DNA from: an uncultured Eubacteriales bacterium
GTDB taxonomy: Bacteria; Bacillota; Clostridia; Christensenellales; Borkfalkiaceae
NCBI GenBank assembly: GCA_900549005.1
Contig: URMT01000056.1
Location: forward strand, 1 to 10,659
DNA length: 10,659 bases
Direction of reading: 5' to 3'
Shown here: positions 6,270-8,677 of the stretch, in pieces
How positions within the stretch are numbered: the stretch's first letter is position 1
Layout of the letters: each line of letters begins with the position of its first letter
Program-made: the position numbers and the translations under genes
Notes under the pieces: model-generated
Told to the model about the DNA's origin: nothing
The model's input: the letters and a program-made list of their open reading frames with translations, nothing else
Databases searched by the model: none

Positions 6270-7154
6270 TTATTTCTTTATCCTGTATACCAGCATATTT
6301 ATCCAAATCTGCACTTTGAACATAAGATAGTCGTACAACCACAAAAACAGCGAGCCCGCGACGAGAATGATTATCCACACGTAATCGTTTATGGTCTGCC
6401 AGAAAGTGCTGGCATTGAGCCCCATAAAGCTGCCGAGCGCATAATACATTACAAATAACATAGCATCGAACCACACCATCTTTACGACGAGCGCAATCCA
6501 CCTGTTTACACTGTATTTAAGTTGCAGAGAATTAGCCAGCGGGTGAAGTCCGAAAAACATTACGAACGGGATAAACTCCCACCATCTGCCCACGAGACCG
6601 CCCACGAGCAATGCGAGAATTACCGTGGCGACATAGGCAAGCACATCCATAACGTAAAACTGCTTTGAAAGAGGCACCATAAGCGCCACCTGTGCGACTA
6701 TATATGCAGTAGCAAGTATCCAATATACGTAATACCCGAGCAGAAGCGCCGCAAACGCCGCGCCGCACGATATCCCCGCGAGCGCTATCTGGAAAGAGCG
6801 CGAATACTTGCGCCTGTCCTTTTGCGGCAACGGCTTTTGCCAGAGCACAAAGTGCCGCTTTTTGCCGCGCTCCGCGCCTGCACCTTCCCGTTCTTCGCCC
6901 GAATGGTTTGAAGCGCTTTCTACGCCACCGGCTTCAAAAAAGCCGTCGTCTGCGGGGGAATTGCCTGTATCTGATTGCGCGGCACCGCCCTTTTTAGCGG
7001 CGTCTGTCTGTTTTTCTGCATTTTGCCCGTCAGGCATTTCGCCCTGTTTTGCGCCGTTATTTGCGGCATAGTAGGGGGTGTTTTGCCCTTCGGGGGAAGA
7101 TATCGACTCTTCCTTATCGCGGGTTTCCCCGCGCATTTTTTTATCTTCGTCCAT
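6270..7154 (-). CDS. Multi-pass membrane protein with a long disordered N-terminal tail, function unknown
   Basis: The 294-residue protein has two parts. Residues 1-115 are hydrophilic and of low complexity, rich in G, E, A, N, Q, D and K, and probably disordered in the cytoplasm, ending in a basic stretch (KKRHFVLWQK, KDRRKYSR) at the membrane. Residues 121-290 hold about five or six hydrophobic segments (roughly 121-142, 144-163, 168-188, 192-206, 218-243, 256-277), with many aromatic residues and few charges. There is no signal peptide, transporter motif or enzyme motif that I recognise. The ATG is preceded by TAAGGTAGG. It starts 37 bases after the stop of the J-like gene and is last in the trpS operon. 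The context suggests it works with the J-like protein, perhaps as its membrane anchor, but that is inference only. Confidence 0.85.
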   Translation of the reverse strand: MDEDKKMRGETRDKEESISSPEGQNTPYYAANNGAKQGEMPDGQNAEKQTDAAKKGGAAQSDTGNSPADDGFFEAGGVESASNHSGEEREGAGAERGKKRHFVLWQKPLPQKDRRKYSRSFQIALAGISCGAAFAALLLGYYVYWILATAYIVAQVALMVPLSKQFYVMDVLAYVATVILALLVGGLVGRWWEFIPFVMFFGLHPLANSLQLKYSVNRWIALVVKMVWFDAMLFVMYYALGSFMGLNASTFWQTINDYVWIIILVAGSLFLWLYDYLMFKVQIWINMLVYRIKK

Positions 7155-7191: not shown

Positions 7192-7812
7192 TCAGCGGCA
7201 GCAGTTGCACAGCATATTGAGGCACATATTGAGCGCGCAGCACTGTATGCACGACGAACAGAAGCTGCCGCCGAGCTGTTCGTCGCCCGAGGGCTGCATA
7301 GTCTGCCCTTCGTATACGCCCTGCTGTCCGCCCTGGGGAGCCTGCGCCTGCTGTGCGTTACTCCTAAGCCTGTCGTTTAATTTGCGGTACGTTTCCTTAT
7401 ACTTTTCGTTGTCGGGTTCGAGCTGCATAGCGATTTCGAGCTGTTTTTTGCTCTCGTTCATCCAGCTCTTTTTATAGAACACCACGCTCTGCAAATAATG
7501 CCAGCGCGCGCCGCGCTCGTTGAACGAGTCGAGCACCCTCTGCGCCTCCTGGATATCGCCCGAGCGGATGAGTTCTTCAACCCTTTCGAACGAGGTGCCG
7601 CCGTTTTCGGAATTGGATTCGGCAAGCTCGCTCATAATTTCGGCATAGGCCGTATCCAGCCTGGTGAGCATACGCGCCGCCTCGTTGCCCTCTTCGCCGT
7701 CTTTGAAGCGGTCTTCGAGGTACTTTGCGCGCAACTTTGAATACGCGTCTTTGATTTCTTCTTCGGTAGCGCCTTCCGAAAGGCCCAAAAGTTCAAGATT
7801 GGACTTCTTCAT
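7192..7812 (-). CDS. Degenerate J-domain protein with TPR-like middle and cysteine-rich tail
   Basis: The 206-residue protein starts with a J-domain-like helical hairpin (LELLGLSEGATEEEIKDAYS, then KLRAKYLEDRF). The HPD tripeptide needed to stimulate DnaK is absent; YLED stands where YHPD would be. Residues about 75-148 look like one or two TPR repeats (SGDIQEAQRVL, then KKQLEIAMQLEPDNEKY). A Gln/Gly-rich linker follows, and then a tail with eight cysteines at 185, 188, 191, 192, 197, 202, 204 and 205. The tail could bind a metal or an Fe-S cluster, form disulfides or be lipid-modified. Its start overlaps the upstream DUF5685-type gene by 20 bases and the nearest GGAG is 14 bases away, so translation is probably coupled. 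It is unlikely to be a normal DnaK co-chaperone; scaffolding of the neighbouring proteins is more plausible. Confidence 0.87.
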   Translation of the reverse strand: MKKSNLELLGLSEGATEEEIKDAYSKLRAKYLEDRFKDGEEGNEAARMLTRLDTAYAEIMSELAESNSENGGTSFERVEELIRSGDIQEAQRVLDSFNERGARWHYLQSVVFYKKSWMNESKKQLEIAMQLEPDNEKYKETYRKLNDRLRSNAQQAQAPQGGQQGVYEGQTMQPSGDEQLGGSFCSSCIQCCALNMCLNMLCNCCR

Positions 7813-8677
7813 TTTTTTCTGATTTTCTCCCGCAGGACCCCGTGCCGTACATCACCGCGCGCGTCTTTAAAGGTATTCCGCGCAGAATGATGTTATCGGT
7901 GAGGTCGTGATTGAATTTGAATTTTATGTTGTAAAGGTGCGAACGCATATCGGCAAACAGGCTGTCGAATATGAACACGAGCTCGCCCTCGCCCTTTTTG
8001 AGCGCCTCTTTCTTTGTCTTTTCGCCGTAATTTAAGTGCAGTACGTTGTACCTGCCCTTTTTTACGTCCTTGTCGTAGTCGTCGAGCGCGTCTATGAGGT
8101 ATACCCACTTGCCTATCGCGTAGCTCAGCCCTTCGGTGTGCTCGTTGGAATGTTCGCCGAGAACTTCGGCAGAGAGCTGCCTCATCATCTGCGCCGTGGG
8201 TTCGCACGCCATATCTATGCTCGTGCAGCTCTGCTTTTCGAGCTCGGCCTGCGCCCTCATCTGTTCGCTTACGATATCCACCACGTTAGGGTATTTTTTT
8301 AAGGCGCGCTTATAGCCCTTGTTATATAAAAACCTGAGCGCGCCGCGCTTGTCGCCGTCGGCCTTGTCGTCGGTGAGTTTATAGTAGGCGAGCACGGTGT
8401 TCACGCAGGCTAAAAGCCTGGTTACGTCGTCCGTCTCGGTCATAGGGCGGCGGCGTATGGGGTGAACGGGGCACCTCCGCCTTACTATTTTTACGTCCTC
8501 GCCGCGGATATTGTGCACGAGCGCAGACATAAAAGCCATATCGTAGGTGAGCGCCGTGCGCGCCATCTGCCCGCACTCTGCGCTGATTGCCCTGCACACG
8601 CCGCAATAGAGCGCCTTGTAAAGCGTTTCGTCCTTGATGAAAAGGTAGGGCCTGTCAGGCCCGATATAGCCAAACAT
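7793..8677 (-). CDS. DUF5685-type protein with isoprenoid-synthase-like Asp-rich motifs
   Basis: The 294-residue, mostly helical protein opens with MFGYIGPDRPYLFIKD and YCGVCRA, which I recognise from memory as the Clostridia family DUF5685; no function is established for it that I know of. Two cysteine pairs, Cys25/Cys28 (CGVC) and Cys69/His72 (RRRCPVHP), look like a metal site. Further on, DDKAD (103-107) and DDYDKDVKKGR (199-209) match the DxxxD and DxxxDxxxGR motifs of squalene/phytoene synthases, about 97 residues apart. This suggests a relative of the all-alpha isoprenoid synthase fold, possibly without the same reaction. The ATG follows AAGGTG with eight bases between. That ribosome binding site overlaps the trpS stop codon nine bases upstream, so the genes form a tight operon. 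The C-terminal tail is charged and not conserved-looking. Confidence 0.85.
   Translation of the reverse strand: MFGYIGPDRPYLFIKDETLYKALYCGVCRAISAECGQMARTALTYDMAFMSALVHNIRGEDVKIVRRRCPVHPIRRRPMTETDDVTRLLACVNTVLAYYKLTDDKADGDKRGALRFLYNKGYKRALKKYPNVVDIVSEQMRAQAELEKQSCTSIDMACEPTAQMMRQLSAEVLGEHSNEHTEGLSYAIGKWVYLIDALDDYDKDVKKGRYNVLHLNYGEKTKKEALKKGEGELVFIFDSLFADMRSHLYNIKFKFNHDLTDNIILRGIPLKTRAVMYGTGSCGRKSEKNEEVQS

What the first reader, a model, noticed from the sequence alone, without database searches (positions are those of the whole stretch)
7793..8677. DUF5685-type protein carries both Asp motifs of squalene/phytoene synthases
DDKAD at 103-107 and D-x3-D-x3-GR at 200-209 match the two diphosphate-Mg2+ motifs of head-to-head prenyl synthases in order and roughly in spacing. 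An added CGVC...CPVH cluster near the N-terminus is not part of that family. It may be an unrecognised isoprenoid-related enzyme or binding protein.
Basis: partly seen in the sequence, partly recalled or inferred. Interest (0 to 1): 0.7.

Follow-up and report, generated by a model that had tools for sequence, protein, structure and literature searches.

The report
Isoprenoid-synthase-fold partner of cysteine-tailed proteins
A bacterial gene of unknown function turns out to have the predicted shape and metal-binding motifs of enzymes that handle isoprenoid lipids, and it usually sits next to a protein ending in a string of cysteines, which suggests a bacterial way of attaching such lipids to proteins.

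Summary

The surroundings add something new. Directly downstream in 107 of 116 loci (106 of 115 distinct) lies a protein with a Cys-rich C-terminus, on a J-domain/TPR or TPR-only body. In four actinobacterial proteins and L109 the Cys tail is fused to DUF5685 itself. In 299 sampled genomes a J-domain Cys-tail match occurs in 21, all among the 33 with DUF5685.

My best reading, not shown, is that DUF5685 transfers a prenyl group to the cysteine tail: a bacterial cysteine S-prenyltransferase on the isoprenoid-synthase fold, with a ComQ/ComX-like gene arrangement.

The parts
7793..8677 (-). DUF5685 (PF18937) protein, 294 aa, predicted isoprenoid-synthase fold
   Evidence: (E 7.5e-69)
8357..8371 (-). 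first Asp motif D103-D-K-A-D107
   Evidence: D103 and D107 invariant in 107 of 107; in the 34-row set D107 is 33 of 34
8066..8092 (-). second Asp motif D196-x3-D200-x3-D204
   Evidence: D196, D200 107/107; D204 106/107; aligns onto N-x3-D-x3-D of squalene/phytoene synthases and the second Asp motif of polyprenyl synthases
8594..8605 (-). C25-G-V-C28, in predicted helix 14-35; proposed metal ligands
   Evidence: both Cys 107/107; helix
8462..8473 (-). C69-P-V-H72, in predicted beta-hairpin 64-80; C69 proposed third ligand
   Evidence: C69 107/107, H72 82/107; hairpin
7192..7812 (-). partner protein, 206 aa: J-like domain without HPD, TPR-like region, Cys-rich C-terminal tail; reading frame overlaps the DUF5685 gene by 20 bases
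   Evidence: PF00226 E 1.6e-5, under the curated cut-off; model (pLDDT 76.9, pTM 0.40) matches J-domain structures, best E 0.054, prob up to 1.00; Cys-tailed partner in 107 of 116 loci
7195..7260 (-). Cys tail of the partner (residues 185-206, CSSCIQCCALNMCLNMLCNCCR), proposed acceptor
   Evidence: last Cys terminal or penultimate in 103 of 107 partners; 896 Cys in 3745 residues of the last 35, versus 26 in 17566 residues before the last 40

Best explanation
DUF5685 is an enzyme of the isoprenoid-synthase superfamily, distantly related to squalene/phytoene synthases, whose substrate partner is a protein with a cysteine-rich C-terminal tail. Proposed mechanism: the two Asp motifs (D103/D107 and D196/D200/D204) hold Mg2+ and the diphosphate of an allylic prenyl donor such as farnesyl or geranylgeranyl diphosphate. 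The three invariant cysteines C25, C28 and C69 hold a zinc ion, whose fourth place is taken by a thiol of the tail, as zinc does in eukaryotic farnesyltransferases. The activated thiolate attacks the prenyl carbon and gives a thioether. The lipidated tail then anchors the J-domain/TPR or TPR protein (or DUF5685 itself where the tail is fused) to the membrane. Shown by computation: predicted fold, conserved motifs, gene pairing, tail conservation, tail fusion. Inferred: diphosphate binding, zinc, tail as acceptor, prenylation, membrane anchoring.
For: Fold; the top viral-library row is a trans-prenyltransferase (E 0.059). Motif invariance. Register with the catalytic motifs of known families. 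The Gln three residues before the second Asp motif of polyprenyl and squalene/phytoene synthases, linked to Trp recognition in ComQ/PalQ-type enzymes (PMC13290415 section 9), is Tyr193 here (107 of 107; His in the four actinobacterial proteins). Partner pairing: Cys-tailed neighbour in 107 of 116 loci (L001 and L108 are the same locus); in 27 of the 33 DUF5685 genomes of a draw of 299, plus one with a fused tail. The J-domain Cys-tail profile matches 21 of 299 genomes, all within the 33. The body varies (J with HPD, J without HPD, TPR only) while the tail stays. The tail is fused to DUF5685 in 4 of 4 actinobacterial proteins read and in L109, two separate places in the tree. Further TPR-Cys-tail genes follow in 9 window-clade loci. 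L109 carries a polyprenyl diphosphate synthase two genes downstream. L084, the one member of the 34 that lost the three Cys, E147 and D200, has no Cys-tailed neighbour.
Against: No activity, metal or lipid was measured. The distance between the Cys triad and the Asp motifs in the model could not be read (no coordinates). Five of the 33 sampled DUF5685 genomes show no Cys tail next to the gene (G060, G163, G231, G255, and G141, whose copy has an in-frame TGA), although the first four keep the Cys triad. Actinobacterial tails are Gly/Asp-rich, not hydrophobic, which also suits metal binding. A polyprenyl synthase gene was found in only 1 of 116 loci, many with short flanks. Six positions are Lys-or-Arg in at least 85% of 107 members (15, 21, 76, 124, 190, 271), so a second diphosphate site, as in chain-elongating or head-to-head synthases, is not excluded. 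The profile match to polyprenyl synthases is weak (hhalign P 0.021), and a profile search of PDB sequences found no isoprenoid synthase. The co-occurrence profile was built from partners in 8 of the 21 matching genomes and does not reach the window-type partner of G001.
Confidence: 0.4

Rival explanations
1. DUF5685 is a small-molecule isoprenoid synthase (squalene/phytoene-synthase-like condensation, chain elongation or a terpene cyclase); the Cys-tailed protein is an accessory chaperone or scaffold, not the substrate.
For: Of the two profiles tried, SQS_PSY is the closer; register N-x3-D-x3-D and YLP/YNP. Both Asp motifs kept; six conserved basic positions could hold a second diphosphate. 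G001, the genome of a close relative, has no PF00494 match and one polyprenyl synthase, so a head-to-head enzyme would not be redundant there.
Against: Does not explain fusion of the Cys tail, its survival when the J domain is lost, or further tail paralogues. Neighbouring isoprenoid genes were seen only in L109 and, several genes away, in L081 (ispD, ispF); no systematic search for such genes was made beyond the polyprenyl synthase profile.
Confidence: 0.24
2. DUF5685 is a non-catalytic member of the fold that acts in metal or Fe-S delivery or assembly; the Cys triad and Cys tail pass a metal between them, the J domain recruits Hsp70.
For: Invariant CxxC and C69; Gly/Asp/Cys tails in Actinobacteria look like metal sites; a fold-mate, NDUFAF6, is counted among SQS-PSY domain proteins (search listing and start of abstract of PMC12470011; its role as an assembly factor is recalled).
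Against: Diphosphate-motif Asp kept in nearly every member is unlikely in a non-enzyme; HPD is lost in 79 of 79 partners of the window clade, so Hsp70 recruitment is not general.
Confidence: 0.2
3. DUF5685 modifies the tail cysteines in some other way with a diphosphate-bearing donor other than a simple prenyl diphosphate.
For: Same genetic evidence as the main reading; a superfamily relative, MoeN5, the top Foldseek hit, uses a non-standard acceptor (recalled).
Against: No donor can be named from the data.
Confidence: 0.1

Closest known systems
Squalene/phytoene synthases (PF00494 SQS_PSY)
   Same: Predicted superfamily fold; DDxxD first motif; second motif in register (D/N-x3-D-x3-D followed by Y-[NL]-P).
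   Different: Below the Pfam cut-off (best 18.8 of 26 bits); D replaces N at the first position of motif 2; invariant Cys triad; paired with a Cys-tailed protein.
trans-IDS-like peptide prenyltransferases ComQ, PalQ, ChrPC P domain
   Same: Isoprenoid-synthase superfamily; enzyme gene next to the gene of its polypeptide substrate (ComQ-ComX, PMC5331326 passages); C-terminal acceptor in PalQ (PMC13290415 section 9).
   Different: All characterised ones act on Trp; the Trp-linked Gln is Tyr193 here; the putative acceptor is Cys. No direct comparison with a ComQ or PalQ sequence was made.
MoeN5 prenyltransferase
   Same: Best Foldseek hits (6j8v, 5b00, prob 1.00).
   Different: About 14-17% identity in the alignments; acts on a moenomycin precursor (recalled).
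Eukaryotic protein farnesyl/geranylgeranyl transferases
   Same: Proposed chemistry only: zinc-activated Cys thiol plus prenyl diphosphate (PMC13290415 passage).
   Different: Different fold (recalled).
Cysteine-string protein (DNAJC5) and CYSTM tails, for the partner
   Same: J domain, linker, Cys-rich C-terminal region (recalled for DNAJC5); top Foldseek hit of the partner model is the DNAJC5 J domain, 2ctw, E 0.054. CYSTM: small Cys-rich tail-anchored proteins (abstract of PMC10217909 in the listing).
   Different: Eukaryotic; DNAJC5 is palmitoylated (recalled); the bacterial partner has a TPR-like region and, in the window clade, no HPD. No sequence comparison of the tails was made.

Membership tests
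DUF5685 (PF18937) | Pfam profile above gathering score over full length | tested here: met
   232.6 bits against cut-off 26.7, residues 1-272
Isoprenoid synthase superfamily | all-alpha isoprenoid synthase fold | tested here: met
Isoprenoid synthase superfamily | two conserved Asp-rich Mg-diphosphate motifs | tested here: met
   conservation shown; that they face each other was not read from coordinates
Isoprenoid synthase superfamily | binds prenyl diphosphate | not testable with these tools
   needs protein
SQS_PSY (PF00494) | Pfam profile above gathering score | tested here: not met
   2 of 107 members match at E<=10, best 18.8 bits against cut-off 26
SQS_PSY (PF00494) | N-x3-D-x3-D then GRxYLP | tested here: inconclusive
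   register met, first residue D not N, GR not conserved, Y-N-P in place of Y-L-P in the aligned members
trans-isoprenyl diphosphate synthases (PF00348) | conserved basic isopentenyl-diphosphate site (GGKRxRP, RR after motif 1, KT; invariant in A6) | tested here: inconclusive
   no single Lys or Arg reaches 85% in A5, but six positions are Lys-or-Arg in 85% or more (15, 21, 76, 124, 190, 271); none lies just after motif 1; the GGKR region was not covered by the profile alignment
ComQ/PalQ-type peptide prenyltransferases | Gln just upstream of the second Asp motif for Trp recognition | tested here: not met
   Tyr193 at the aligned place in 107 of 107; feature from PMC13290415 section 9
ComQ/PalQ-type peptide prenyltransferases | prenylates a polypeptide encoded next door | not testable with these tools
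   adjacency met; activity untested
Eukaryotic protein prenyltransferases | alpha/alpha-barrel fold with catalytic zinc | tested here: inconclusive
   not among the listed fold matches, which cannot exclude it
J-domain proteins (partner) | J fold with HPD motif | tested here: not met
   J fold supported; HPD absent in the window protein and in 79 of 79 partners of its clade (L001 is a fragment), present in 23 of 28 others

The most novel reading that the evidence does not exclude
DUF5685 is the first bacterial cysteine S-prenyltransferase: an isoprenoid-synthase-fold enzyme with a Cys3-zinc thiol-activating site that lipidates the C-terminal cysteine strings of J-domain, TPR and fused proteins, giving bacteria an independent counterpart of eukaryotic protein prenylation and of cysteine-string chaperones.
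Probability: 0.32. Interest if true: 0.92.

Novelty: new variant of a known kind. Interest (0 to 1): 0.74.

Why it matters
A Pfam family of unknown function seen here in Bacillota, Actinomycetota and Thermotoga maritima gains a predicted fold, a probable substrate class (prenyl diphosphates) and a partner. [quoted passage not shown] Even if not, the cis/trans link between this enzyme fold and cysteine tails is a question that mass spectrometry of one protein pair could settle. My paper searches found one paper naming DUF5685, in a list of domains, none with PF18937 and none joining cysteine string, J-domain, bacteria and prenyl. A wider search for bacterial cysteine prenylation listed 10 of 38 papers, of which I read only PMC13290415 in part, so a report after 2017 is not excluded.

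Tried and rejected
NCBIfam gave only a weak TrsH match (E 0.033). A Pfam scan of 107 members also gave weak hits to unrelated families (FTCD_C in 7 members, best E 0.013; CENP-O 3; 25 of 58 families shown), so the Pfam SQS_PSY hits alone prove nothing; the shuffle and ORF controls do the work. The polyprenyl synthase profile gave no useful score (best 6.6 bits). The idea that the neighbour matters as a J protein was dropped because HPD is lost in the window clade and the J domain is missing in L102, L110 and L115 while the tail remains. The CCECMGGD tail pattern was absent in the four tail-less genomes G060, G163, G231, G255 (other tail types would be missed), and no match along the whole partner profile was found there.

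Full report
What is there. The ORF at 7793-8677(-) encodes 294 aa and is a full-length DUF5685 protein (PF18937, E 7.5e-69). Relatives are abundant: 1151 proteins with E<=0.001, of which the best 120 are listed. The nearest loci of genome contigs are uncultured Clostridia, among them Candidatus Coproplasma (74-79% identity for the first seven). No whole genome is held for the window.

Conservation. I aligned the window protein with 106 of the 259 proteins listed by three searches, chosen for spread (A5). Invariant in 107 of 107: Y24, C25, C28, C69, D103, D107, E147, G189, Y193, D196, D200, N211; D204 in 106, D155 in 106; H72 only 82; R209 only 30. In a second set of 34 rows (window and loci from genomes, plasmids and phage-labelled records) D103, D196, D204 and N211 are 34 of 34; C25, C28, C69, E147 and D200 are each 33 of 34, the exception being L084; D107 is 33 of 34 (N in L100); Y193 is 33 of 34 (H in L082). 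Three more actinobacterial proteins keep the Cys triad and D103, D196, D200, D204; L152 has E at 107 and all three have H at 193.

Sequence link. Profile-profile comparison with 19 polyprenyl synthases (A6) gave P 0.021 and with 4 SQS_PSY proteins (A7) P 0.0062, both weak, but in each D196, D200 and D204 fall on the catalytic second motif. A profile of the 4 SQS_PSY proteins scores 28 of 107 members at 10 bits or more and 6 at 15 or more; 0 of 2140 shuffled and 0 of 811 other ORFs reach 10 (5 and 1 reach 5 bits, against 51 members). Pfam SQS_PSY itself is matched by 2 of 107 members, best 18.8 bits, under the cut-off 26. So the family is a remote relative, not a member of SQS_PSY.

The partner. 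In the window the DUF5685 frame overlaps the next gene, 7192-7812(-), by 20 bases. That 206-aa protein has a J-like domain (PF00226 25.3 bits, under cut-off 27.8; J-domain structures head its fold search although none is under E 0.05), a TPR-like region and the C-terminus CSSCIQCCALNMCLNMLCNCCR. Across 116 DUF5685 loci in hand (80 from genome contigs, the best of 149 and close relatives of the window; 3 plasmid and 2 phage-labelled records; 30 from a phylum draw; the window), 107 have a Cys-tailed ORF just downstream on the same strand (at least 4 Cys in the last 35 residues). L001 and L108 are the same locus, so this is 106 of 115 distinct. Of the nine others, L016 runs off its contig and L025 ends close to a contig end, L082 and L109 have the tail fused to DUF5685, and L084 and L111-L114 show none. 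83 of 107 overlap by at least a base, ORF starts taken furthest upstream. The last Cys is terminal or penultimate in 103 of 107; Cys make up 896 of 3745 residues in the last 35 and 26 of 17566 before the last 40. As control, 27 of 836 other ORFs of 100 aa or more in these loci pass the same test; by eye 10 of the 27 are TPR-Cys-tail paralogues encoded after the partner and 9 end in zinc-ribbon-like sequence.

Tail, not J domain, is the constant part. HPD is absent in 79 of 79 partners from the window and genome-contig loci (one, L001, is a fragment) and present in 23 of 28 others; the five without are L083 (NPD), the fragment L108, and L102, L110, L115 without a J domain. L102, L110, L115 and two further genomes (G093, G128) have a short TPR-like protein with the tail. 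Four of four actinobacterial DUF5685 proteins read (Nocardia PE-7, Nonomuraea, Nocardia farcinica, Tsukamurella) and L109 end in their own Cys cluster. On a 37-row tree the fused state needs two changes, forced by well-supported branches, though L109 is a long branch. Nine window-clade loci (L020, L023, L033, L039, L043, L044, L046, L056, L079) carry one to three further TPR-Cys-tail genes downstream with at least 5 Cys; L018 has one with 4.

Co-occurrence. In the same draw of 299 genomes of the phylum of G001, DUF5685 is in 33 and a match to the partner profile A9 at E<=1e-26 in 21 (19 along nearly the whole profile, 2 short J-plus-tail proteins). All 21 are among the 33, none among the 266 others (Fisher P 3.8e-24). 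Eight of the 21 genomes supplied rows of A9; without them it is 13 of 25 against 0 of 266 (P 4.0e-16). Genomes are related, so these P values are too small. Of the 33, 27 have an adjacent Cys-tailed gene, one a fused tail, four none, and G141, with an in-frame TGA, none. In 20 genomes without DUF5685 no match spans J domain and tail; the longest is 2-150 of 201. In the family of G001 (genome of L001, 77% identical to the window protein) 38 of 41 genomes have DUF5685. Thermotoga maritima is the only one of 14 control genomes with it.

How it may work. Two Asp motifs argue for Mg-diphosphate chemistry. Whether a second diphosphate site exists is open: no single Lys or Arg is conserved at 85%, but six positions are Lys-or-Arg at that level. 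A gene that travels with, sits next to, or fuses to a Cys tail suggests the tail as acceptor. Three invariant Cys recall zinc sites that activate thiols (general knowledge; for farnesyltransferase, PMC13290415 passage). ComQ with its neighbouring substrate ComX (PMC5331326, passages) and PalQ with its C-terminal acceptor (PMC13290415 section 9) show that this superfamily can modify polypeptides. What speaks against: no chemistry is shown, the Cys triad's place relative to the active site is unknown, four tail-less genomes keep the triad, and actinobacterial tails could as well hold metal.

Verdict. The fold and superfamily assignment I hold at about 0.95. That DUF5685 acts on or with the Cys tail I hold at about 0.65, and that it prenylates it at about 0.4.

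Noticed in passing
window 7192-7812 (-) and partners in L001-L080: The J-like domain of the partner has lost HPD (mostly LED/LEE in its place) in 79 of 79 partners of the window clade, so it probably cannot stimulate Hsp70 (inference).
   Followed up: partly
L020, L023, L033, L039, L043, L044, L046, L056, L079 (and L018), about 1.1-2.3 kb after DUF5685: Further small TPR-like proteins, each ending in its own Cys tail.
   Followed up: partly
L109:3065-3825(+): A polyprenyl diphosphate synthase gene (cut by the locus end) lies two genes downstream of a DUF5685 with fused Cys tail.
   Followed up: no
L084:5995-6864(+): A DUF5685 relative on a phage-labelled faecal scaffold whose other ORFs look bacterial to me has lost the Cys triad, E147 and D200 and has no Cys-tailed neighbour.
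   Followed up: partly
L001:6861-7483 (same locus as L108): The partner ORF appears split into two frames in this assembly; described only.
   Followed up: no
window 6270-7154 (-): 294-aa protein with a charged N-terminal and a hydrophobic C-terminal half, no Pfam match at E<=1 or NCBIfam match at E<=10.
   Followed up: no
L190:1774-2688(-): A second, divergent DUF5685 copy in genome G003 without a Cys-tailed neighbour in the 4.5 kb fetched.
   Followed up: no
L086-L091, L093, L094: A small protein with a hydrophobic start and a zinc-ribbon-like end (CPHC...CPCC) follows the partner in these eight loci.
   Followed up: no
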